Positions 1,088 to 53,730 of a DNA stretch of 64,000 bases are shown here, piece after piece (the stretch's first letter is position 1; the number at the start of each line of letters is the position of its first letter). The DNA is from Styela clava. Its lineage: Eukaryota; Chordata; Ascidiacea; Stolidobranchia; Styelidae. Both the position numbers and the translations under genes were made by a program. The notes under the pieces were generated by a model. That model saw nothing but the letters and a program-made list of their open reading frames with translations. It was not told the origin of the DNA and did not search any database. The stretch lies in the NCBI RefSeq assembly GCF_964204865.1, contig NC_135259.1, positions 19,230,974 through 19,294,973 of the forward strand. The letters are read 5' to 3'.

Positions 1088-1177
1088 TGCTCCAGGTGAG
1101 GCTCGAACTCACAACCTCCGCATTGCTCCGTAGCTGTCTTATAAGTACGGCGCGCTAACCGATTGCGCCACTGGAGC
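1088..1177 (-). tRNA. tRNA-Ile (anticodon UAU) with 16-nt intron
   Basis: Full 90-nt gene. The acceptor stem GCTCCAG/CTGGAGC has discriminator A, the D stem is GCGC/GCGC, and the T arm is GTGAG-TTCGAGC-CTCAC. The anticodon stem CCGTA/TGCGG encloses loop CTTATAA, so the anticodon is TAT, which decodes AUA. A 16-nt intron sits after position 37, the canonical site for eukaryotic nuclear tRNA introns; tRNA-Ile(UAU) is one of the animal tRNAs known to carry one. No CCA is encoded. This copy differs from the array copies in its intron (GACAGCTACGGAGCA) and in A38. It looks functional. Confidence 0.93.
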
Positions 1178-2353: not shown

Positions 2354-2443
2354 GCTCCAGTGGCGCAATCGGTTAGCGCGCCGTACTTATAAAACAGATA
2401 CGGAGTGATGCGGAGGTTGTGAGTTCGATCCTCACCTGGAGCA
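2354..2443 (+). tRNA. tRNA-Ile (UAU) with 16-nt intron
   Basis: Full 90-nt copy with intact acceptor, D and T arms (T loop TTCGATC) and anticodon loop CTTATAA. The intron reads AAACAGATACGGAGTG and keeps the TACGG block. Followed at once by a TTTT run, a good Pol III terminator. The 60 bp upstream are shared with the copies at 13953 and, inverted, 7832, so the flank was duplicated along with the gene. Confidence 0.92.
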
Positions 2444-2901: not shown

Positions 2902-2991
2902 GCTCCAGTGGCGCAATCGGTTAGCGCGCTGTACTTATATGACAGTTACGGAGTGGTGCGGAGGTTGTGAGTTCGATCCTCACCTGGAGCA
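2902..2991 (+). tRNA. tRNA-Ile (UAU) with 16-nt intron
   Basis: Full 90-nt copy. C28 is T, which still wobble-pairs with G42 in the anticodon stem (CTGTA/TGCGG). Loop CTTATAT, T loop TTCGATC. No nearby TTTT terminator follows. Probably functional but slightly weaker than the consensus. Confidence 0.85.
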
Positions 2992-3596: not shown

Positions 3597-6500
3597 CAGT
3601 GGCGGCGCGTGGTCATTTTGACAACCGGGGCAAGCTACTGCGGGACCAAGTCACCCTACCCTACGGGGACAGGATGAGCGCTGTAAGTTCTCCCATCATT
3701 TTATGAGTATAAAAACCATTCCATCGGTAACAACCAATCGGCAAAAGCGACAATTTTTAACGATAAGAAAGTGTCTTTAAAACCGGTCCAAGTCAAGGGA
3801 TTAATAAATATAGACATAGTTTATTTTGAAACCTCTTTCAAAAGGAAAGGCAATATTTACCCAGATAAATACAATGACATATTAACAGAAACTTCGGGAA
3901 AGCAGACAAAACCTAAAATAAGGTTTAAAACGTTACTTTGAAGAAAGGAAAGTTAATGCAAAGATAAGGACATGCGTCGCTCACTCATAGATATATATGC
4001 TGCTAGACTTCTACTGCTTGAACATATATGCAACACGCCGCGGTTTCTTGAAAGCAAAATGCTCAATAACGCGCTGATTAAAGTCATGCATCCCAGAAAT
4101 AACGTCTCTGTGAATGGATAAAACAGCCAAGGAATTTAATCTATCTTGCTTCATTGTGTTTCTGAGATACGTTTTAATACGCTTCAGCGTGCTGAATGTT
4201 CGCTCTGCGTCGGCGGAAGAAATAGGCGTCGTCAAAATGATGTCCAGAAACTTTGCAGACGCCGCAAAGGTAGTTACTAGAGTGTTATCTATGAGGAACC
4301 CATAGAGCGCGCAAGTTGATGTGATGTTCAAAAAAGTTTGATTGGTGTATATACATCGCAATTCATTTTCCAATTTACCCACGTTTATCATGGGGTAAAA
4401 TTTGGAGACAGTAGCCAACAAATGGATGGGAAATTAACGTGAAAATTTTGAAAAATTTTTGGGGTTCATCAAAGAGAACGCGGCAAGGTGTTCAGTGCGC
4501 AGACGATCGCCTATTTGATTCACCAGAATGTCACAGCATTCCTTTGCAGACAAAATCAAACGCTGCGTTGTTTGCCCGCGGCGTAAAGAAGCACTCCATG
4601 TGTCGTCGTATTTTATTGTTTCCCGGATACAAGATACAGCATCGCAGAAGTCTGAATACACGACTGCACAGACGCTCCATCCATTAGCCTTGACTGCAAT
4701 GCGCCGTATAATACATCCACGTGATAGAATATTGTGGAGAAAAAAGAGAGAAAAAATGAAAACTCACCATCTTCTAGCAGACGCTTTAGACCTGCCGCCT
4801 CCCTCACAGAGCGTTCGTCCCAAACCGGAGAGCTCTGAATGCCATTGAAACACTCAATGAGCTCAGACCTAATTTCGGACACGCCCTGCACCACGCGTGA
4901 TTGGAAGTTCCAACGTGTTGGTGCACAAGCTGGGAGACGGCGGCTACATATCTGGCGAAGGAGGTCAGAGCGCTTCGGCGAAACGAAAAAAAATGAAGAA
5001 AACCCCGAAACATTTGCAAAAAATATACGGACGAGAGGGGTATCAAGACACATATTTTTAATAACGAGGTTAAATTGGTGTGCATAACAATGTAAAAAAT
5101 GCGCATGAGGAAAATCTTCTTTTATATAAACTTGAACACCATGTTTCGACCCACTCATGACTGCCGCGCCGTCATAAGTTTGAGCTATCAATTTTGACTT
5201 CGCGTTGTAAGGCTGTAACACTTCTTTCAGTACAGTCGATATCCCGCAAGCCGTGCAAGCAACGATTGGTACAAAGCTGTGAAATCTCTCGGTAGGTTTA
5301 CCATCTTTCACAAACCGAAAAATCACAGCCAGTTGGGAAACGCACGTGATGTCAGTTGTCTCGTCAGACTGAATCGAAAGGAACTGGCAATTCTCAATTT
5401 CCAGAGCCAAATGTTGTAAATAAATTTTATACATTGAGTCGAGCAAATCATTTTGGATATCCTTAGATGTCCATTTCGAAACAGTTGCGGCATCAAGATG
5501 ATCTCTCAATACTGTATCTAGGGATGCGGTGTATTCCACCATATCCAAAAATACCCCTCTATTAGAAGAGCCAGCCCGTTCATCGTGCCCACGGAGGGAC
5601 AGCTCGTGACAACCAATGAACTTCAAAACGTCTATCAATCGACCGAGAACATGGCGGTTTTTCTCGACGTTTTGGTTGTGCCGACGAATAGAAACCGCGC
5701 GTCCTTCATCCAACTGTGCTGCAATATTAACATTTCCGAATGTTCGGTATTTTACTGCATTGTCCAGATGCTCCATAGAAGATTGATGATCCCTGGCACG
5801 CTCGGAAAGATGTTTAAGATCTCTAAAACCAAATTTACACCAACGTGAGTCACGGGCGGTAGCAAAAAGTAGGCAATAAAAACAAAAAAGTGCATTTTTG
5901 TCCTCGCTGTAACACAACCATTCGTGTTTTTTATACCAAGTTTCTGCGCAGAATGTACGCCGACGCTTTCCTCCGTCATGGGATTGTTCCAGTGAACAAT
6001 TTTTTGGTTGATAAGGCCCAGGACGTTGTACCTCTAATTTTTGTTCCAGCGGCAGCTGCGAAAACGGAGTGCGAAGTAGTGCATCAACCTTATTCATTAT
6101 GAGGTCTAAGGCTAAGAAATGCAAAGCCGGAAAGAAGTGAGGAGCTCAAAAGGAATGTGGAAAATCGAAAGCAAATGGACTAAAGGTCTCTAACTGATTC
6201 AAATAGCGAAACAAGCGACAAAAACGAAGGCGAGGAAAGTATCAACTCTTCAAGCAACCAACGAACGAGGAGGAATGCGTGAATATGTCAACACGTTGTT
6301 GTAAGAAACGTCGGCATTGTGTCGTCATAATTTCGGGGCTAGCCCCGATGATTTAGTAAAAGAAACAGAAAACAAACGAGACAAACGCGGCGAGTGGAAG
6401 ATAAAAGAGAGAATACGATATACAATGAGCAACCGGGGCAAAATCGGCGTCGCCCCGTCGACGTTCGGCGAAGGCTTTGCGAGCGAAAAATGAACCATGT

Positions 6501-6627
6501 CGGGAGAATATGGCTAGTGTAGACAGTCTGTGCAACCGATATTGAGGTATTTTTCGAATATTTTTTATTATACCGAAAAAACAACCGGGGCATTGCCCCG
6601 GTTGGCCCTATTGACGCGCCGCCACTG
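3597..6627. mobile_element. hAT-superfamily DNA transposon (autonomous-type, broken)
   Basis: A 3,031-bp element bounded by inverted repeats starting CAGTGGCGGCGCGT and flanked by an 8-bp target duplication. The subterminal regions at both ends carry the word caaccggggc and palindromes of the type gggctagcccc, which are candidate transposase-binding sites (inference). It carries one minus-strand transposase gene (4011-6124). The transposase has a TTF zinc finger and a C-terminal hAT dimerisation region, as in ZMYM/DUF4371-type hAT elements. Boundaries are strongly supported by the inverted repeats and the duplication together. Confidence 0.9.
4011..6124 (-). pseudogene. hAT transposase (TTF zinc finger/DUF4371/hATC type), one frameshift and one stop
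   Basis: The first 503 residues are open (6124 to 4613). Residues about 55-120 look like a TTF zinc finger (C81, C84, H113, H119). The RNase H-like region has QSDET with D254 and TYDGA with D318, the usual hAT acidic sites, then HCYAH near 345-349 and APTRW near 401-405. Reading then has to change frame within about 4613-4690. The next frame runs to an in-frame TAA at 4434-4436 and resumes in the same frame to 4011, ending in the hATC region with DAERTFS. So only two lesions separate it from a full-length gene, implying recent loss. The true start may lie upstream of the ATG at 6124. Confidence 0.88.
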
Positions 6628-6635
6628 AATTTGGA
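6628..6635. repeat. Target-site duplication, right (aatttgga)
   Basis: Right-hand partner of the 8-bp duplication flanking the hAT element. Confidence 0.8.
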
Positions 6636-7157: not shown

Positions 7158-7247
7158 GCTCCAGTGGCGCAATCGGTTAGCGCGCCATACTTATATGACA
7201 GTTACGGAGTGATGCGGAGGTTGTGAGTTCGATCCTCACTCGGAGCA
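7158..7247 (+). tRNA. tRNA-Ile (UAU), weakened copy
   Basis: Full 90-nt copy with loop CTTATAT. The anticodon stem carries G29 to A (CCATA against TGCGG), and the 3' acceptor strand reads TCGGAGC, giving an A-C mismatch in the acceptor stem. A TTTTT run follows, so it may still be transcribed. Likely decaying. Confidence 0.7.
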
Positions 7248-7562
7248 ATTTTGAATCTTGCATGCCAGACCATCAAATTTAAGTTTGAACAATAGCACGT
7301 GAGTCTGATACTGGATACAGCGCAATAATGTCCAAGCCACGATGAACCATTGTTCGCCGTTTCTTTTGTAAAGGTTCGTATAAAATATAGGCCATTGAAC
7401 ACCACTTGGAATCATTCAAATACATATTTTCAGGTTATTTAAGGGTCGATTGATGGCAAGGGTGAGCAATATTTTCCTCACCTAGAGCAACTTATTTGTT
7501 TATTACTGCATGTAACCGCAACATCAATGGCTGTTTGGTCCCAACGCTGGTATGAAAAAGCG

Positions 7563-7606
7563 GCTCCAGTGGCGCAATCGGTTAGCGCGCCGTACTTATG
7601 TGACAG
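7563..7606 (+). pseudogene. tRNA-Ile(UAU) 5' half
   Basis: Identical in style to the array copies through the anticodon and start of the intron. It then jumps after 'gacag' into the CAGGGGTGTGCAAC-type MITE sequence, so the 3' half is missing. Confidence 0.8.
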
Positions 7607-7682
7607 AGTGTTGATAAGGGCCACACTAAATAGCTCGACGGGTTGGGTTGTGGCCCGCGGGCCGCCTGTTGAACACCACTGA
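7607..7682. repeat. hAT-like MITE fragment fused to a tRNA half
   Basis: Contains 'ggcccgcgggccgcctgt' and joins directly to the truncated tRNA at 7563-7606. The junction shows a rearrangement between the two repeat types. Confidence 0.55.
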
Positions 7683-7831
7683 TTTATGGGTATCATTAAA
7701 TGTGAAGTAGAGAGAATACCAGGATATATACCATGTAAACATTTTGAAATAGAATTAGTAAAAATCGATATCAGTCATCAGGTTTTATCATTCAAAAGGT
7801 TCTTGCATGGCTCAGCTTGCGTGGAAAAAAT

Positions 7832-7921
7832 TGCTCCAGGTGAGGCTCGAACTCACAACCTCCGCATCGCTCCGTAGCTGTCATATAAGTACGGCGCGCT
7901 AACCGATTGCGCCACTGGAGC
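7832..7921 (-). tRNA. tRNA-Ile (UAU) with 16-nt intron
   Basis: Full-length minus-strand copy with intact acceptor, D and T arms, anticodon TAT and intron TACGG block. A run of six T follows on its own strand. Its 5' flank (7922-7980) is the inverted counterpart of the flank of 2354 and 13953. Confidence 0.92.
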
Positions 7922-8095
7922 GGACAAGTCCCGTAGCATATAAAAACATTCGAAAAAATACAACCGTCCTTTATTTAAATATGTTTCGTACTCAAGCCAC
8001 AATCTACCACGATGCGTCATGATAAAAGAGTTAAATATTGGTTACCATAGGAAGCGAGTCGAAAGGTTAGTAGTAGAATAGAAGAAGGCCAGCCC

Positions 8096-8186
8096 GCTCT
8101 ATTGGCGCGATCTGTTAGTGCGCCGTACTCTCAGGACAGTTACGGAGTGATGCGCGAGGTTGTGAGTTGGAGCCTCACCTGGAGCA
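8096..8186 (+). pseudogene. tRNA-Ile-derived copy with altered anticodon loop
   Basis: 91 nt. The acceptor begins GCTCTAT, the D region reads GCGCGATCTGTTAGTGCGC, and the anticodon loop is CTCTCAG, so position 34-36 would read CUC instead of UAU. The 3' anticodon strand has an insertion (tgcgcgagg) and the T loop is TTGGAGC. Shares its 75-bp upstream flank with 10956-11045. Probably a pseudogene. Confidence 0.65.
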
Positions 8187-8260
8187 ACCTATTTGTTTAT
8201 TACTGTATTGTAACCCCAATATCAATCGCTGATTGGTCCCAACGCTGGTCTGAAAATGCG

Positions 8261-8350
8261 GCTCCAGTGGCGCAATCGGTTAGCGCACCGTACTTATATG
8301 GCAGTTACGGAGTGATGCGGAGGTTGTGAGTTCGAGCCTCACCTGGAGCA
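8261..8350 (+). tRNA. tRNA-Ile (UAU) with 16-nt intron
   Basis: Full 90-nt copy, with G26 to A and intron TGGCAGTTACGGAGTG. All stems pair. Lies 165 bp after the previous copy and 163 bp before the next, so 8096-8512 is a three-unit tandem array. No TTTT before the next unit. Confidence 0.87.
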
Positions 8351-8423
8351 ACTTATTTGTTTATTACTGCATGTAACCGCAATATCAATCGCTGATTGGT
8401 CCCAACGCTTGTCTGAAAATGCG

Positions 8424-8512
8424 GCTCCAGTGGCGCAATCGGTTAGCGAGCCGTACTTATATGACAGTGACGGAGTGACGCGGAGGTTGTGAGTTCCAGC
8501 CTCACCTGGAGG
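8424..8512 (+). pseudogene. tRNA-Ile (UAU), decayed copy
   Basis: Keeps the TAT anticodon. The T loop is TTCCAGC, which damages the internal Pol III B box, the intron block is TGACGG, and the acceptor end lost its final bases (ctggagg). A T6 run follows. Third unit of the 8096-8512 array. Confidence 0.65.
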
Positions 8513-8919
8513 TTTTTTACTTTTGCATGCTAAACCCATCAAAGTACTGTTTAAACAATTGCAAATGAGTCTGATACCGGATGAAACGGTAAATAATTTT
8601 AAGCCACGATGCACCATTGTTCGCCGCTTTTTCTGCAGATGTTCGCATAATATATAGGTCAATGTTTACCATTTACAGAGTTTCAGATCATTGAGAGGTT
8701 TATTTATAGCGGGGGTTGTGCAATATTTTTTTCCTTTGAAGCATATAAACAACTTCAGACATCCAGTGGGAGCCATACAAAAAGTACACAGCGAATTAAA
8801 AATATAGCGACAACCAGACACCGCGGGAAAGGCAAGATAAGGGAATACGGCTATGGTTTACCCTCCCAGGTATAAAAGCACCGGGGAAACTGGATTTACC
8901 GCAGCTGCAAGTGCAAAAA
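8513..8919. other. tRNA 3' flank and gene-free DNA
   Basis: The first part ('tgcatgctaaacccatcaa') resembles the 3' flanks at 7250, 9755 and 13200, so a block downstream of the tRNA is also duplicated. Nothing else is recognised. Confidence 0.4.
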
Positions 8920-9080
8920 TGATTATGTATTTTTACCCATGTGAACGGCTAGTCAAACAAACTGTCTAATTAGAATTTTATGCTTGATGGGGAAAATCTG
9001 AGTGTTGACAAGGGCCACACTTAATAGCTCGACGGGTTGTGTTGTGGCCCGCGTGCCGCTTGTTGCACGCCCCTGATTTA
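8920..9080. repeat. hAT-like MITE fragment
   Basis: Same family as 3105-3265, with 'gatggggaaaatctgag' and 'gtggcccgcgtgccgct'. Confidence 0.55.
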
Positions 9081-9152
9081 TGAGTATCATTAACTGTGAA
9101 GTATAGAAAATATCAGCATATATATCATGTAAACATTTTGAAATCCGATTGC

Positions 9153-9173
9153 GACCGATTGCGCCACTGGAGC
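9153..9173 (-). pseudogene. tRNA-Ile 5' fragment
   Basis: Minus-strand acceptor and D arm only (complement of gctccagtggcgcaatcgg), followed by the shared 5' flank at 9174-9235. Confidence 0.6.
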
Positions 9174-9645
9174 GGACAAGCCCCGAAGCATATGAAAACA
9201 TTTGAAAAACAAATCCATTCTTGAGCAAATACAAAAAAAGGATTTCCTATAAGATGGCCAAATTATGGGTCGAAGGTTATTCTTACTTCATTTTAAAATC
9301 ATATATTTATTTATTACGGATTAATTCAGTTGGTTGTTGATCGTTGTTGAAAACCTCAATAAAGGTGAATTCCCAATCTTGATTCAATGAGAGTGAATAT
9401 ATAGTATAGCAAGAAAGAAACCAGAATCGAGCTTTGAACATTAGTTATGTTTCCAACTCAAGCCACACTCTAGCTAATAATCTGCCAGCTCAATACTAAA
9501 TGTGACGCAATGATACCTATATAGGTGACCCAATATCGCGTAAATGTTGAAATACAAAATTTAAGGGTATTGTGAATAAGTTAAATATTGGTTACCATTG
9601 AAAGCGAGTCGAAGAGATAGCAAGAGAATAGGACGACGCCTATCC

Positions 9646-9742
9646 GCTCCACTGGCGCAATGCCGCAATCGGTTAGCACGCCGTGATTATGAAACAGCTA
9701 CGAAGTGATGCCGAGGTTGTGAGTTCGAGCCTCGCCTGGAGC
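9646..9742 (+). pseudogene. tRNA-Ile-derived copy with internal insertion
   Basis: Full-length but degenerate. A short duplication (cgcaatgccgcaat) disrupts the D arm, the anticodon region reads CCGTGATTATGA, and the T stem is CTCGC. The anticodon stem 3' side is TGCCG. Not expected to fold properly. Confidence 0.65.
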
Positions 9743-10079
9743 GTTATATTCTTGCACGCCAAACCATCAAAGTACTTTTTGAGCAATGGCACGTGACTTT
9801 GATACTGGGTGCAGCAGTAAATAATGTCCAAGCCACAATGCACTATTGTTCACCGTCTCTTTTTCAAATGTCCGCATAAAGTATATGTCATTGAATACAA
9901 TACCACTATTGATAGGGCCGAAATAGGGGTCTCACTAAATATGTAGTAGAGAGAATATTAGAATATATATCACGGTAATATTTGAAATAGAATCATTTAT
10001 AATCGATGTAGGCCGGAGCGGACAAGTACCGACTTAACTGAAAACATTCGAAAAAATACAACCATTCTTGTATAAATTT

Positions 10080-10727
10080 GAGTTGGGTTGCGCGAGACTA
10101 AGTTCCTATCTTTTCTCTATGCCTTTATGCTAGTGGATCCGTATGCGTATACTGCAAGGATACTGTAGCTGGAATAAACATGACTATTCTATTCAATTAA
10201 AGAGTCCAGCTGCACACTAACACAAATGTATTTCTGTAACGTTTCGTCCGACCAGAGTCAGACTTCCTCAGACAAGTTTACAACAATGGCAAGAAATTCA
10301 GCAATAACTTATAACCTTTTTTAATTTTGAAATTGGTTCTCACCAGACTAAGCCTTGATTTATGTTTAAATGTTGGTTTACTTCCTCGTGGTTCTCTAAG
10401 TGCCCATAATTTCAATTACATTTTGTTACCCATCATTTTTGTAAATGCAATAATAAAACTTTTTTTTTTTTTTTAATTACATCTGAAATGAGCTCCACTG
10501 ATATTCGTGGTTCTAATCTTCCCATCATTACTTTTACGGCTAAATGCAAATTAAATGTTTATGCATTGTTACGTCATACTTGATTTGATATTTCAAATTC
10601 ATTTACCAAATTTATTTCTTGCCATTGTTGTAAACTGCTTGTCTGAGGAAGTATGACTTTGGTCGGACGAAACGTTACAGAAATACATTTGTGTTAGTGT
10701 GCAGCTGGACTATTTAATTGAATAGAA
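10080..10727. mobile_element. Foldback element with ~110-bp inverted arms (FB1)
   Basis: Left arm about 10188-10297 and right arm about 10612-10727 are near-perfect inverted copies, including gtgcagctgga, acagaaatacatttgtg and the block CTGAGGA-stem-GAAAC. A further left extension (10080-10187) matches the copy at 40397 and, inverted, the fragment at 25045-25200. No protein is encoded. Each arm carries a hammerhead-like core (see findings). Class is uncertain: a foldback DNA element or inverted copies of a Penelope-like terminal repeat. Confidence 0.65.
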
Positions 10728-10879
10728 CATTCTTGTATATATTATGTTTCGAACTCAAGCCACAATCTACCTAAATATCTAACGACGCAATGCATAATGT
10801 AACATTTTATTACCTGTATAGAAATATAGGTGTCTTGGCCCAATTCCGCGTAAATATTAAAATACTAAGTTTTAGGTCA

Positions 10880-10955
10880 TGATAAAAGACGTAAATATTG
10901 GTTACCGTAGGAAGCGAGTCGAAAGGTTAGTAGTAGAATAGGAGGAGGCCAGCCC
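10880..10955. repeat. Duplicated 5' flank of tRNA-Ile copies
   Basis: Nearly the same as 8020-8095, upstream of the 8096 copy (shared words ggaagcgagtcgaaaggtta and tagtagaatagga). A related block precedes 9646 and 13633. Its duplication with the tRNA shows DNA-level copying. Confidence 0.7.
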
Positions 10956-11045
10956 GCTCCATTGGCGCGATCTGTTAGTGCGCCGTACTTGCAGGACAGT
11001 TACGGAGTGATGCGGAGGTTGTGAGTTGAAACCTCACCTGGAGCA
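10956..11045 (+). pseudogene. tRNA-Ile-derived copy, anticodon reads UGC
   Basis: 90 nt, first unit of the large array. The anticodon loop is CTTGCAG, so positions 34-36 read UGC (an alanine anticodon) in an isoleucine tRNA body. The acceptor reads GCTCCAT and the T loop TTGAAAC, which weakens the B box. Sister of the 8096 copy. Probably not functional. If it were charged with Ile it would misread Ala codons. Confidence 0.65.
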
Positions 11046-11119
11046 ACCTGTTTGTTTATTACTGTATTTTAACCCCAACAATAGTGGCAAATTGTTCAGA
11101 ACGCTGGCTGGAAAGAGGG

Positions 11120-11209
11120 ACTCCAGTGGCGCAATCGGTTAGCGCGCCGTACTTATATGACAGTTACGGAGTGATGCGGAGGTTGTGAGTTCGAGCCTCA
11201 CCTGGAGCA
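11120..11209 (+). tRNA. tRNA-Ile (UAU), A1 variant
   Basis: Consensus except that base 1 is A, losing the first acceptor pair with C72. No TTTT in the following spacer. Confidence 0.78.
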
Positions 11210-11282
11210 ACTTATTTGTTTATTACTGCATGTAACCGCAACATTAATGGCTGATTGGTCCCAACGCTGGTCTGAAAAAGCG

Positions 11283-11372
11283 GCTCCAGTGGCGCAATCG
11301 GTTAGCGTGCCGTACTTATATGACAGTTACGGAGTGATGCGGAGGTTTTGAGTTCGAGCCTCACCTGGAGCA
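11283..11372 (+). tRNA. tRNA-Ile (UAU), G49T variant
   Basis: Consensus except for T at the first T-stem position (ggttttgagttcgag) and a T in the base before the anticodon stem (GCGTGCCGTA). One T-stem pair is lost. No terminator before the next unit. Confidence 0.78.
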
Positions 11373-11445
11373 ACTTATTTGTTTATTACTGCATGTAACC
11401 GCAACATTAATGGCTGATTGGTCCCAACGCTGGTCTGAAAAAGCG

Positions 11446-11535
11446 GCTCCAGTGGCGCAATCGGTTAGCGCGCCATACTTATATGACAGTTACGGGGTGA
11501 TGCGGAGGTTGTGAGTTCAAGCCTCACCTGGAGCA
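11446..11535 (+). tRNA. tRNA-Ile (UAU), CCATA stem variant
   Basis: Has A29 opposite C41 in the anticodon stem (a mismatch), intron GGGGTG, and T loop TTCAAGC. No terminator before the next unit. Function doubtful. Confidence 0.7.
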
Positions 11536-11607
11536 ACTTATTTGTTTATTACTGCATGTGACCTCAACATTAGTGGCTGATTGGTCCCAACGCTGGCCTG
11601 AAAAGCG

Positions 11608-11697
11608 GCTCCAGTGGCGCAATCGGTTAGCGCGCCGTACTTATATGACAGTTACGGAGTGATGCGGAGGTTGTGAGTTCGAGCCTCACCTGGAGCA
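11608..11697 (+). tRNA. tRNA-Ile (UAU) with 16-nt intron, consensus copy
   Basis: Matches the array consensus throughout: GCTCCAG/CTGGAGC acceptor, GCGC D stem, CCGTA-CTTATA anticodon side, 16-nt intron with GACAGTTACGG, TGCGG, T loop TTCGAGC. A T6 run 12 nt downstream can terminate Pol III. Confidence 0.93.
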
Positions 11698-11770
11698 ACT
11701 TATTTGTTTTTTACTGCATGTGACCTCAACATTAATGGCTGATTGGTCCCAACGCTGGTCTGAAAAAGCG

Positions 11771-11860
11771 GCTCCAGTGGCGCAATCGGTTAGCGCGCCG
11801 TACTTATATGACAGTTACGGAGTGATGCGGAGGTTGTGAGTTCAAGCCTCACCTGGAGCA
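11771..11860 (+). tRNA. tRNA-Ile (UAU), TTCAAGC T loop
   Basis: Consensus except T loop TTCAAGC, a variant also seen in functional animal tRNAs of this type. No TTTT before the next unit. Confidence 0.87.
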
Positions 11861-11933
11861 ACTTATTTGTTTATTACTGCATGTGACCTCAACATTAGTG
11901 GCTGATTGGTCCCAACGCTGGCCTGAAAAAGCG

Positions 11934-12023
11934 GCTCCAGTGGCGCAATCGGTTAGCGCGCCGTACTTATATGACAGTTACGGAGTGATGCGGAGGTTGT
12001 GAGTTCGAGCCTCACCTGGAGCA
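11934..12023 (+). tRNA. tRNA-Ile (UAU), consensus copy
   Basis: Identical to 11608-11697, and followed by the same T6 run. Confidence 0.93.
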
Positions 12024-12096
12024 ACTTATTTGTTTTTTACTGCATGTGACCTCAACATTAATGGCTGATTGGTCCCAACGCTGGCCTGAAAAAGCG

Positions 12097-12186
12097 GCTC
12101 CAGTGGCGCAATCGGTTAGCGCGCCGTACTTATATGACAGTTACGGAGTGATGCGGAGGTTGTGAGTTCGAGCCTCACCTGGAGCA
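12097..12186 (+). tRNA. tRNA-Ile (UAU), consensus copy
   Basis: Identical to 11608-11697, and followed by a T6 run. Confidence 0.93.
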
Positions 12187-12259
12187 ACTTATTTGTTTTT
12201 TACTGCATGTGACCTCAACATTAATGGCTGATTGGTCCCAACGCTGGTCTGAAAAAGCG

Positions 12260-12349
12260 GCTCCAGTGGCGCAATCGGTTAGCGCGCCGTACTTATATGA
12301 CAGTTACGGAGTGATGCGGAGGTTGTGAGTTCGAGCCTCACCTGGAGCA
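12260..12349 (+). tRNA. tRNA-Ile (UAU), consensus copy
   Basis: Identical tRNA to 11608-11697. The spacer is the long type, and the first TTTT is about 60 nt downstream (attgttttagg). Confidence 0.92.
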
Positions 12350-12437
12350 GCTTATTTGCTTATTACTGCATGTAAACGCAACATCAATGATTGAGTGATG
12401 TTGGCAGATTGTTTTAGGACGCTGGCTGGAAAGAGCG

Positions 12438-12527
12438 GCTCCAGTGGCGCAATCGGTTAGCGCGCCGTACTTATATGACAGTTACGGAGTAATGCGGAGG
12501 TTGTGAGTTCGAGCCTCACCTGGAGCA
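12438..12527 (+). tRNA. tRNA-Ile (UAU), intron variant
   Basis: Consensus except the intron ends GAGTA. A run of at least seven T follows almost immediately, the strongest terminator in the array. Confidence 0.92.
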
Positions 12528-12601
12528 ACTTTTTTTCTTTCTTACTGTTTGTAACCTCAACATCAGTGGCAGATTGGTCCCAACGCTTGTCTGAAAAAGC
12601 G

Positions 12602-12691
12602 GCTCCAGTGGCACAATCGGTTAGCGCGCCGTACTTATATGACAGATACGGAGTGATGCGGAGGTTGTGAGTTTGAGCCTCACCTGGAGCA
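12602..12691 (+). tRNA. tRNA-Ile (UAU), GCAC D stem
   Basis: The D stem reads GCAC against GCGC, giving an A-C mismatch in the A-box region; the T loop is TTTGAGC. No TTTT before the next unit. Likely reduced function. Confidence 0.75.
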
Positions 12692-12764
12692 ACTTATTTG
12701 TTTATTACTGCATGTAACCGCAACATTAATGGCTGATTGGTCCCAACGCTGGTCTGAAAAAGCG

Positions 12765-12854
12765 GCTCCAGTGGCGCAATCGGTTAGCGCGCCGTACTTA
12801 TATGACAGTTACGGAGTGATGCGGAGGTTGTGAGTTCGAGTCTCACCTGGAGCA
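12765..12854 (+). tRNA. tRNA-Ile (UAU), T-loop TTCGAGT
   Basis: Consensus except the last T-loop base. No TTTT in the following spacer. Confidence 0.86.
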
Positions 12855-12941
12855 AATTATTTGTTTATTACTGCATGTAACCGCAACATCAATGATTGAG
12901 TGATGTTGGCAGATTGTTCAGAACGCTGGCTGGAAAGAGCG

Positions 12942-13031
12942 GCTCCAGTGGCGCAATCGGTTAGCGCGCCGTACTTATATAACAGTTACGGAGTGATGCG
13001 GAGGTTGCGAGTTCGAGCCTAACCTGGAGCA
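12942..13031 (+). pseudogene. tRNA-Ile (UAU), T-stem damaged
   Basis: The T arm reads GCGAG-TTCGAGC-CTAAC, losing two stem pairs. The intron begins TAACAG. A T6 run follows. Probably a decaying copy. Confidence 0.65.
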
Positions 13032-13104
13032 ACTTTTTTCTTTATTACTGTTTGTAACCTCAGCATCAGTGACAGATTGGTCCCAACGCTTGTCTGAAAA
13101 AGCG

Positions 13105-13194
13105 GCTCCAGTGGCACAATCGGTTAGCGCGCCGTACTTATATAACAGTTACGGAGTGATGCGGAGGTTGTGAGTTCGAGCCTCACCTGGAGCA
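13105..13194 (+). tRNA. tRNA-Ile (UAU), last array unit
   Basis: GCAC D stem as in 12602, otherwise intact, with T loop TTCGAGC. Followed by TTTTA. Last unit before the array breaks into the dispersed-copy 3' flank. Confidence 0.78.
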
Positions 13195-13319
13195 ATTTTA
13201 CTCTTGCACGCTAAAAAGTTCTTTTTGAATATTGACACCTGATACTGGGTGCAGCAGAAAAAAATGTCCAAGCAACGATGCGCCATTGTTCGCCGTTTCT
13301 TTTGCAAATGTTCGGTTAG

Positions 13320-13432
13320 AATATGTGAAAAACTGTCTAATTAAAATTTTACACTTGATGGGGAAAATCTGACTGTTGACAAAAAATACTTTAAATAGCT
13401 TAGCGGGGCAAGTTGCCTGTTGCACACTCCTG
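13320..13432. repeat. hAT-like MITE fragment
   Basis: Shortened member of the family at 3105 and 8920 (gatggggaaaatctgactg; the GC-rich core is mostly lost). Confidence 0.45.
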
Positions 13433-13632
13433 ATTTATTAGTACCATTATTTTGAATTAGAGAGAATATCAGTATTTATATCATGAAATGAATATCATGA
13501 ATATAGGTGTCTTGGCCCAATACCGCGCAAATATTAAAATACTAAGTTTTAGGTCATGATAAAAGATGTAAATATTGGTTACCATAGGAAGCGCGTCGAA
13601 ATGTTAGCAGGGTAATAGTATTGCGCCTGCCC

Positions 13633-13722
13633 GCTCCAGTGGCGCAATCGGTTAGCGCGCCGTACTTATATGACAGATACGGAGTGATGCGGAAGTTGTG
13701 AGTTTGAGCTTCACCTGGAGCA
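13633..13722 (+). tRNA. tRNA-Ile (UAU), dispersed copy
   Basis: Full length. The T arm is GTGAG-TTTGAGC-TTCAC with one G-T pair and the variable region reads GAAGTT. The upstream flank resembles that of 10956. The first T run downstream is only TTT. Confidence 0.78.
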
Positions 13723-13952
13723 ACTTTATTTCATGCAAGCTCAGCCTTAAAAAAATGGAACGATAGCACCTGATTAACCTATATCCACTTTTACTATTCT
13801 ATTTCTAAATGTCAGCATGATCTATATTTTGGTTACAATCAAGTAAAATAACCTTCGATCTATATTTTGTGCTTCAAGAAAAACTTTCTTCAGTATTTGC
13901 TCACGAATGGTTATGTTTTTTCAAATGTTTTCATATGACTTCTAACCTGTCC

Positions 13953-14042
13953 GCTCCAGTGGCGCAATCGGTTAGCGCGCCGTACGTATATGATAGATAC
14001 GGAGTGATGCGGAGGTTGTGAGTTCGAGCCTCACCTGGAGCA
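13953..14042 (+). pseudogene. tRNA-Ile (UAU) lacking U33
   Basis: All stems are intact and a TTTT run follows, but the anticodon loop is CGTATAT: the universally conserved U33 is G. The anticodon still reads TAT. Could be transcribed yet not work in translation. Confidence 0.7.
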
Positions 14043-17255: not shown

Positions 17256-19299
17256 CTTTGGTTTTTGACCGTTCTTCAATAAACATGTTATTTGGTAGTA
17301 ATATTGATATATTAATATACATTGATCTGATTTCGTTTCTGTGGAATTAGATAAGATCTTTACATTGTAGAACCGGGATAGCCTATTAACACAGAACATA
17401 ACTTGGTCGCGTTTCCAAATTTAGAGGGTGGTAAATATTTTGCTCAGTTGGTTTTTGAACTTATTATTCAGTAGGTATGAGCTATTAAATACGTATTGAT
17501 CTAATTTGTCTCTGTGAATTTTTAGAAGATCTCTACTTTGTAAAAGCGGAATAGCTTATAAAAACGAAACATGAATAAGAGAGACAAATTGCTATATAAA
17601 AAGATGTGTGTATTTCACTCGATTTCACTGTCATTGAATCAATCCATGCATCTGAAACAAAAAGATGGCTAACTAACCTCATACCCGACATGGACTAATA
17701 ACCAGAGAAGAGGCCGTAGTTCTTCATATAATTGAGCCGTCTTATATGTTTTTTCTTCCCAGACTATTTATTAAAATCCTATCCTTGTAGATCAATTGTT
17801 CGGTTCGTTTTTGGTCGCTGTTAAATCCAATTTGGTATTCACGAAACATGTTATTAAGTAGTAATGAAATATTAATATACATTGATGTAATTTGTCTCTG
17901 TGGATTTAGATAAGATATTTACATTGTAAATGCGGAAAAGAATGTTAAAACAAAACATGAATAAAAAAGTCAAATCAATATATTGGAAAAAAGATTTATA
18001 TTTTGCTTTATTTCACGGTTATTGCAGCTGCGACTCAGTAATTTGTACAGATGATAGTCACGGTGGTTAAAAACTCCCAACATTCGCAACCAGTATGTTA
18101 CCCAGTTTTTCATTTTCGTGGGAATTTGAGGGGATGTTAAATATTTTGCTATTATCGATAAATAGGACAATTTGGTCTAATGGTTAAAATCGTTCCAGAT
18201 GAAGCTCGAACTCACAACATCAGCATCTAGTATTCTCCCCAAATTTCATTTTAGGGGTTCAAATTTAGGTGTCGGTAAATATTTCTCGATGAATAAAACT
18301 ATTTGGTCGTGGACACTCTCCCAGACTATCCATCTATTTTTCAGAACTTCCCACAAAATATAAATATCGGGTCTTTATTTCCAGATCTCAACTTTTTATA
18401 TAAATTGTATGCTAGTTGTTCGTTTGGTTGTTTGACTGAATTTGTTCAGTAGCAATATACTCAATATATATATTGATCCAATTCGTCTTTGTGAATTTAG
18501 ATAGGATCTTTAGTCTTTATATTGTAAAAGCGGAATAGCTTATTACCACAAAACATGAATAATATAATCAAATCCATATATAAAAACATGAGAAATCCTT
18601 TTTTGCTCTATTTCACGGTTATTGGACTATAATCTACGGGTCAATAGTTTGGACAGACGTTATGGTGGTTAAAATTGTTCCAGGTGAGGCTCGAACTCCC
18701 AACATCCGCATCCAGTATGCTCCCACGATTTATCATTTTAGGGGGGATTTAGGGAGTGTTAATACTTGCTATTATGAATAAATATACCTTTTTGATCGAG
18801 GACACTTTGCCAGACTATCCATTTATCTTCCATAAGTTCCCACAAATATAAGTTGCGGGTCTATTTTTTAAAATATTAACTTATTATATAAATTATACAC
18901 CAGTTGTCTGTTTGGTTGTGTTGATTGTTGATCAATTCAATTTGTTCTTCACGAAACATGTTATTCAATAGTAATAAAATAGTATTACGTGTTGATCTGA
19001 TTCGTGTCTTTGTCGCTGTAGATTTAAATAAAATCTCTACATTGTGAAGCCGGAATAGCTTATTAAAACGAAACATGAATAAAATAGACAAATTCCCAGA
19101 TTGAAAGCATGGCGTATAAATTATTTCACTATTATTGATTTGAAATCGGGATTTGTCCTCGCGTGTGTTTTCAGAAACGGTCAATAACCAACCGTCTAAT
19201 GTTAACTAATCCCCTAACGAGAGTTTGTGCCATATAATTAGGCCGTCTTATCTGCTTACTTTTCTCTGGGCTAATTATTAAAATCTTATTCTATCCTCC

Positions 19300-53193: not shown

Positions 53194-53253
53194 TGATTTG
53201 GAATCAAACATAATTCGCAATCGCATAGATTTAATATTAATAAAACTGTTAAT

Positions 53254-53730
53254 ACATCGAAAAATGTAACCTCCTCACGAATGACGTCATTCTGTACGTC
53301 GAAAAATGTAACCTCACGAATGACGTCATTCTGTACGTCGAAAAATGTAACCTCCTCACGAATGACGTCATTCTGTACGTCGAAAAATGTAACCTCCTCA
53401 CAAATGACGTCATTCTGTACGTCTAGAAATGTAACCTCCTCACGAATGACGTCATTCTGGACGTCGAGATATGTAACCCCCTCACAAATGACGTCATTCT
53501 GTACATCGAGAAATGTAACCTCCTCACGAATGACGTCATTCTAAACGTCGAGAAATGTGACCTCCTCACGAACGACGTCATTCAGAACATCGAGAAATGA
53601 AACCTCCTCACGAATGACGTCATTCTGAACGAGGGAGACAGAAATCATTCGAACGACGTCATTCAGAACATCGAGAAATGAAACCTCCTCACGAATGACG
53701 TCATTCTGAACGAGGGAGACAGAAATCATT
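53254..53730 (+). repeat. 42-bp minisatellite with TGACGTCA in each unit
   Basis: Unit: acgtcgaaaaatgtaacc, tcctcacgaatgacgtcatt, ctgt. About eleven units; nine have TGACGTCA and two have CGACGTCA. One unit lacks three bases. The last part forms a two-unit higher-order repeat with 'gagggagacagaaatcatt'. TGACGTCA is the full CRE/ATF site. Confidence 0.92.

What the first reader, a model, noticed from the sequence alone, without database searches (positions are those of the whole stretch)
7158..14042. Large expansion of an intron-bearing tRNA-Ile(UAU) gene, including a 14-unit tandem array
Counting both ends of the window, about 25 full-length copies and at least five fragments occur in 14 kb, fourteen of them in perfect head-to-tail order at about 163 bp. 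Known: animals usually carry few genes for this AUA-reading isoacceptor. At least four copies are identical, which suggests recent spread or homogenisation. Inference: this may be the main source of this tRNA, or a satellite made of tRNA genes.
Basis: partly seen in the sequence, partly recalled or inferred. Interest (0 to 1): 0.85.

Follow-up and report, generated by a model that had tools for sequence, protein, structure and literature searches.

The report
Tandem array of tRNA-Ile(UAU) genes
This is a real tandem cluster of genes for the transfer RNA that reads the codon AUA, but the same animal genome packs several other transfer RNA genes into comparable or larger arrays, so it is a local example of that genome's habit and not a special expansion.

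Summary
The first 14 kb hold 25 near-full-length tRNA-Ile(UAU) copies, 21 recognised by ARAGORN or Rfam. Fourteen stand head to tail at 10956-13194 (spacing 162-164 bp, twice 177-178), and four are identical over 90 nt. They look like tRNA genes kept under constraint: exons vary about five times less than spacers among 13 units, 2.6 times with the two degenerate units included, and 14 of 25 keep every stem pair. Shared 5' flanks and a duplicated three-unit block point to segmental duplication, not retroposition. The idea that this isoacceptor is specially expanded is not supported: Thr(UGU), Cys(GCA), Lys(UUU) and Ile(AAU) genes also sit in long arrays, and exact anticodon-arm patterns give Thr 111, Cys 73, Ile(UAU) 45, and Trp 8 plus 7. 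The window holds 17 of those 45; a separate cluster on C18 has eight intact copies. Large tRNA clusters in animals are published (PMC2888827). Many array units lack a Pol III T4 terminator, but so do other arrays here, so no special read-through mechanism is claimed.

The parts
10956..13194 (+). Tandem array of 14 tRNA-Ile(UAU) units (about 163 bp each, two of 177-178); the first unit (10956) is degenerate; 7 of 14 have all stem pairs
   Evidence: TRF, ARAGORN, Rfam, BLAST and stem check, unit alignment
12260..12695 (+). Three-unit block A (long-spacer unit, T7 unit, plain unit), a higher-order repeat
   Evidence: 95% identical to the block at 12765 over 436 aligned positions
12765..13198 (+). 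Three-unit block B, duplicate of block A
8096..8511 (+). Short array of the same family, about 2.5 units (8096 degenerate, 8261 with intact stems, 8424 with three stem mismatches)
   Evidence: TRF; stem check
7158..7247 (+). Dispersed tRNA-Ile(UAU) copy with two stem mismatches
   Evidence: Rfam 43.7 bits, not called by ARAGORN in the window
7832..7921 (-). Dispersed tRNA-Ile(UAU), stems intact, T6 just downstream
9658..9742 (+). Degenerate tRNA-Ile(UAU) copy (86% over 85 nt)
   Evidence: not called by ARAGORN or Rfam
13633..13722 (+). Dispersed tRNA-Ile(UAU), stems intact, no T4 within 15 nt
   Evidence: ARAGORN and stem check; no Rfam hit at the gathering score
13953..14042 (+). Dispersed tRNA-Ile(UAU), stems intact, T4 downstream; T to G before the anticodon (position 33 in my partition)
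1088..1177 (-). Dispersed tRNA-Ile(UAU), stems intact, no T4 within 15 nt
2354..2443 (+). Dispersed tRNA-Ile(UAU), stems intact, T4 downstream
2902..2991 (+). Dispersed tRNA-Ile(UAU), stems intact, no T4 within 15 nt
7563..7606 (+). 5' fragment of the gene (44 nt)

Best explanation
A cluster of ordinary nuclear, intron-bearing tRNA-Ile(UAU) genes in an animal genome, amplified locally by segmental duplication and unequal exchange. It is one of several such arrays in this genome. The intact copies are probably transcribed by Pol III from internal promoters, spliced, and used to read AUA codons; the degenerate copies and fragments are decaying by-products. Shown here: copies, intron-length insert, stem integrity, exon constraint, duplicated flanks, a duplicated three-unit block, and parallel arrays of other isoacceptors. 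Inferred: transcription, splicing, use in translation, and unequal exchange as the amplifying step.
For: ARAGORN or Rfam recognises 21 of 25 copies. Among 13 units (12 of the main array plus 8261) mean pairwise difference is 0.025 in exons, 0.048 in the intron and 0.126 in spacers; variable sites are 11 of 74 exon and 31 of 73 spacer positions. Over 53 copies of 90 nt in the fetched loci, mismatches to the reference unit are 0.018 per exon site and 0.088 per intron site, and 23 of 53 have no exon mismatch. The block 12260-12695 is 95% identical to the one at 12765, and some copies share 5' flanks of about 80-133 bp (D2, D5, D6). Other families in arrays: Lys(UUU) on C2, Cys(GCA) on C10, Thr(UGU) on C17 and C13, Ile(AAU) on C13. 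AUA codons are in use: 109 of 364 Ile codons in 20 kinase-domain stretches.
Against: Of the 15 units that are followed by another unit, 10 have no T4 starting within 15 nt of the gene end and 9 none within 30 nt, so efficient Pol III termination there is uncertain. Seven of the 14 array units have at least one stem mismatch. With the degenerate units 8096 and 10956 included, exon difference rises to 0.055 against 0.144 in spacers, and exceeds the intron's 0.042. ViennaRNA did not give the cloverleaf as the lowest-energy fold. No expression, chromatin or read data were available.
Confidence: 0.87

Rival explanations
1. Transcriptionally silent tRNA-derived satellite: the units spread as tandem DNA and the tRNA sequence is a passenger.
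For: Regular 163-bp period, duplicated three-unit block, degenerate first units; no T4 within 15 nt in 10 of 15 units followed by another.
Against: Exons vary about five times less than spacers among 13 units, 2.6 times among 15; 7 of 14 array units, and 38 of 53 ninety-nt copies in the fetched loci, keep all stem pairs.
Confidence: 0.08
2. tRNA-derived SINE family dispersed by retroposition.
For: Multiple dispersed copies and fragments.
Against: Some copies share sequence upstream of the gene start, which retroposition of a Pol III transcript would not carry. Copies are concentrated: 32 of 45 exact-arm matches lie on C13 between 19.22 and 19.72 Mb and 9 on C18.
Confidence: 0.02
3. Assembly artefact: a short array was falsely expanded.
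For: Two units (11608 and 12097) are identical over 163 bp. No raw reads could be examined.
Against: Of 15 units aligned, that is the only pair shown as identical; the rest differ by point changes or spacer length. Separate arrays with other periods exist on C13 at 19.41 and 19.71 Mb and on C18.
Confidence: 0.03

Closest known systems
Large animal tDNA clusters (Nematostella, zebrafish, stickleback; PMC2888827, passages seen)
   Same: Many tRNA genes clustered within 1000 nt (89% in Nematostella, 65% in zebrafish, 87% in stickleback); clusters of fifty and more members
   Different: Nematostella and zebrafish pairs are reported as mostly heterogeneous; this one is a single-isoacceptor array with a short 163-bp unit
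Human 1q23.3 tRNA VNTR (PMC4041453, passages seen)
   Same: Head-to-tail tRNA repeat units, kept alike (98%)
   Different: About 7.3-kb units with five tRNA genes each, GC-rich; here a 163-bp unit with one gene. That paper calls homogeneous tRNA tandem repeats outside Entamoeba uncommon
Arabidopsis tRNA-Cys(GCA) cluster (PMC10701932, start of abstract in the search listing only)
   Same: One isoacceptor in short repeated units (0.4 kbp)
   Different: Four genes in a plant, against 14 units here
Intron-bearing eukaryotic tRNA-Ile(UAU) (PMC4090602, passages seen)
   Same: UAU anticodon and an intron; in yeast Pus1 pseudouridylates U34 and U36 only on the intron-containing precursor
   Different: Copy number and tandem layout; modification not testable here

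Membership tests
Functional tRNA-Ile(UAU) gene | Cloverleaf recognised by tRNA models, anticodon TAT | tested here: met
   21 of 25 window copies by ARAGORN (19 as Ile(tat), one undetermined) or Rfam (20); 8096, 8424, 9658 and 10956 are not recognised. A minimum-energy fold did not show the cloverleaf
Functional tRNA-Ile(UAU) gene | Short intron one base 3' of the anticodon | tested here: met
   A 16-nt insert after CTTATA in the reference unit, by my partition; all 45 exact-arm matches span the same 36 bases
Functional tRNA-Ile(UAU) gene | Pol III T4+ terminator just downstream | tested here: inconclusive
   Within 15 nt: 36 of 41 copies outside the arrays of the window, 5 of 15 units followed by another unit. 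Cys array 0 of 13 and Lys arrays 7 of 17, so its absence is not diagnostic in this genome
Functional tRNA-Ile(UAU) gene | Expression, splicing and charging | not testable with these tools
   No RNA data
Homogeneous tDNA cluster (definition of PMC2888827: same amino acid, neighbours within 1000 nt) | Neighbouring genes of one kind within 1000 nt | tested here: met
   Unit spacing 162-178 bp
tRNA-derived SINE | Copies share sequence only from the transcription start onward | tested here: not met
   5' flanks of about 80-133 bp shared among some copies (D2, D5, D6)
tRNA-derived SINE | Target-site duplications and poly-A or simple tail | not tested
   Not examined
Satellite DNA without function | Even divergence over the unit | tested here: not met
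   Exon 0.025 against spacer 0.126 among 13 units; 0.055 against 0.144 among 15

The most novel reading that the evidence does not exclude
Array units that lack a T4 terminator are read through by Pol III, giving multi-tRNA precursors that are cut into single tRNA-Ile(UAU); units with a T6 or T7 (11608, 11934, 12097, 12438, 12942) act as shared stops. Because the Cys(GCA) genes and many Lys(UUU) genes examined here also lack T4, this animal might have widely relaxed Pol III termination in its tRNA arrays.
Probability: 0.1. Interest if true: 0.5.

Novelty: new member of a known kind. Interest (0 to 1): 0.2.

Why it matters
As found, it is a clear example of tRNA genes amplified in tandem, with degenerate first units, a higher-order block and constrained exons. 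It also shows that a single window can make a genome-wide habit look like a special expansion. It would matter more if tRNA sequencing showed read-through precursors, or unit-specific expression, from arrays that lack the usual terminator.

Tried and rejected
Special expansion of the AUA isoacceptor: rejected after other families gave comparable or larger arrays. First-look candidate numbers (42 for Ile(UAU), 187 for Ile(AAU), 247 for Thr(UGU), 249 for Cys) are not gene counts, so exact-pattern counts were used. Those patterns have 19-27 fixed bases, were each made from one copy, miss variants, and also gave a smaller family (Trp: 8 CCA and 7 TCA). Ile(AAU) and Lys(UUU) were not counted by pattern.

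Array-specific loss of Pol III termination: first suggested by 5 of 15 array units against 36 of 41 other copies, then weakened because the Cys array has 0 of 13 and the Lys arrays 7 of 17 (17 of the 20 Rfam Lys-array hits were used, three weak or partial ones left out). The Fisher p-values treat related copies as independent and are not true probabilities.

ViennaRNA did not return the cloverleaf as the minimum-energy form, for the precursor or the spliced form, and the constrained run gave the same fold as the free one; ARAGORN and Rfam were relied on instead.

Naming the animal: a search for COX1 in the assembly found nothing; the species stays unknown. Paper searches listed no title on a tRNA-Ile(UAU) tandem array; only the listed titles and abstract starts were seen (20 of 73, 10 of 31, 2 of 2, 5 of 5), in an open-licence library.
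Full report
The observation. The window lies at C13:19230974-19294973 of a 376.6-Mb assembly in 379 contigs. One 90-nt unit matches the window at 25 places of 85 nt or more between 1088 and 14042, plus four short fragments, two of them beyond 18 kb. ARAGORN reports 19 tRNA-Ile(TAT), one undetermined and one tRNA-Thr(TGT); Rfam reports 21 tRNA hits, 20 of this family. Together they recognise 21 of the 25. Fourteen units stand head to tail from 10956 to 13194, 162-164 bp apart except for two spacings of 178 and 177. Four copies are identical over 90 nt.

What the copies are. The reference 90-nt copy splits into a 74-nt tRNA and a 16-nt intron after the base 3' of the anticodon; that partition is mine. 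In 20 fetched stretches of 10 kb there are 58 near-full copies (a 59th, at C13:19229929, is cut by a stretch end), 53 of them 90 nt long. Of these 53, 38 keep all stem pairs and 23 have no exon mismatch to the reference unit. In the window 14 of 25 keep all pairs, nine do not, and two (8096, 9658) could not be scored in this way. In the 14-unit array it is 7 of 14. Unit 10956 has lost the TAT anticodon (CTTGCA in place of CTTATA).

Constraint. Among 13 units (12 of the main array plus 8261; the last unit 13105 was not in the alignment, and the degenerate 8096 and 10956 were left out) mean pairwise difference is 0.025 in exons, 0.048 in the intron and 0.126 in spacers. With those two included it is 0.055, 0.042 and 0.144. 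Variable positions among the 13 are 11 of 74 in exons and 31 of 73 in spacers. A passenger satellite would be expected to vary evenly, so the tRNA part seems to have been kept.

How it spread. Units 12260-12695 and 12765-13198 form a duplicated three-unit block, 95% identical. Some copies share 5' flanks of about 80-133 bp (D2, D5, D6), which fits DNA duplication and not retroposition. Separate arrays with other periods lie at C13 19.41 Mb (171 bp), C13 19.71 Mb (164-168 bp) and C18 3.716-3.719 Mb (six copies at five equal steps of 523 bp). Unequal exchange is the inferred mechanism.

The genome-wide picture. An exact anticodon-arm pattern gives 45 tRNA-Ile(UAU) matches in the genome, 17 of them in the window; the reversed control gave 0. 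Similar patterns give 73 for Cys(GCA), 71 of them in C10:6.846-6.958 Mb, and 111 for Thr(UGU), of which only the first places are listed, most in C17:3.25-3.33 Mb. Patterns for Trp gave 8 (CCA) and 7 (TCA), all on C10. Rfam's tRNA model put 37 of its 63 scored hits in C2:15.88-15.99 Mb; the 18 genes ARAGORN calls in two fetched stretches there are all Lys(UUU). Of 40 scored Ile(AAU) matches 35 lie in C13:18.45-18.68 Mb, and in three fetched loci they are found together with repeated Asn and Glu genes. So tandem amplification is seen in several tRNA families here, and the AUA family is not the largest.

Demand. In 20 kinase-domain stretches (5,278 codons) AUA is 109 of 364 Ile codons, 20.7 per thousand, close to ACA (19.7) and to the two Cys codons together (22.1). 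The Ile(UAU) gene number is thus not high for its codon. This is a small sample of one protein family.

Terminators. Of 15 units followed by another unit (13 in the main array, two in the short one), 5 have T4 or longer starting within 15 nt, against 36 of 41 other copies. Units 11608, 11934 and 12097 share a T6 through the same single-base difference. The idea that this array in particular is read through lost weight when the Cys array gave 0 of 13 and the Lys arrays 7 of 17. [quoted passage not shown]

Known comparators. Clusters of fifty and more tRNA genes, and 65-89% clustering in Nematostella, stickleback and zebrafish, are reported in PMC2888827 (passages). A human tRNA VNTR is described in PMC4041453 (passages), which calls homogeneous tRNA tandem repeats uncommon outside Entamoeba. 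Spread of tRNAs by tandem duplication, and concerted evolution, are discussed in PMC4981973 (passages). The yeast role of the tRNA-Ile(UAU) intron is in PMC4090602 (passages). That animals usually carry few genes for this isoacceptor is recalled, not tested.

Verdict. A real, ordinary member of a known kind; the special-expansion reading is not supported. Among things noticed in passing, the tRNA-Trp variants with a TCA anticodon may deserve more attention than the finding itself.

Noticed in passing
L030:4101-4174 (G000:C10:6890101-6890174) and six further places in C10:6.894-6.924 Mb: tRNA-Trp genes inside the Cys array carry the anticodon TCA in place of CCA. The one read in full has stems that look intact by eye. 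Exact patterns give 7 matches with TCA and 8 with CCA; the two patterns differ in length (27 and 23 bases) and miss other variants. If expressed, such tRNAs could read the stop codon UGA. One paper search (three titles listed) showed nothing on such genes in animals.
   Followed up: partly
L031 (G000:C154:57001-62000), L032 (C216:48001-51000) and other small contigs: In L031 a tight cluster of seven tRNAs (Asp, Tyr, Thr, Gly, Ile(TAT), Pro, Arg; gaps of 1-4 nt) that looks bacterial or phage-like; 22 of 63 tRNA-model hits fall on small contigs of this kind, and where one recurs on a contig it does so about every 44-46 kb. One ORF in L031 matches thymidine kinase. Perhaps a phage, virus or symbiont element in the assembly.
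   Followed up: partly
window about 3597-6628: A DNA transposon with inverted ends (CAGTGGCGGC...GCCGCCACTG, read by eye) and a DUF4371 ORF at 4613-6124 on the minus strand lies inside the tRNA cluster. A hAT-like nature is recalled.
   Followed up: partly
window 10174-10740: A 103-bp inverted repeat, 93% complementary with 361 bp between the arms, just upstream of the array: a possible small transposon (I5).
   Followed up: no
window 18194-18227 and 18676-18712: Two tRNA-Ile(UAU) 3' fragments about 480 bp apart in similar surroundings, outside the main cluster.
   Followed up: no
L034-L036 (G000:C13, about 18.67 Mb): Mixed arrays with Ile(AAU), Asn(GTT), Glu(TTC) and Glu(CTC) genes; the Asn and Glu(TTC) genes recur about every 1.6 kb.
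   Followed up: no
window 53253-53712: A 42-bp minisatellite, 11 copies.
   Followed up: no
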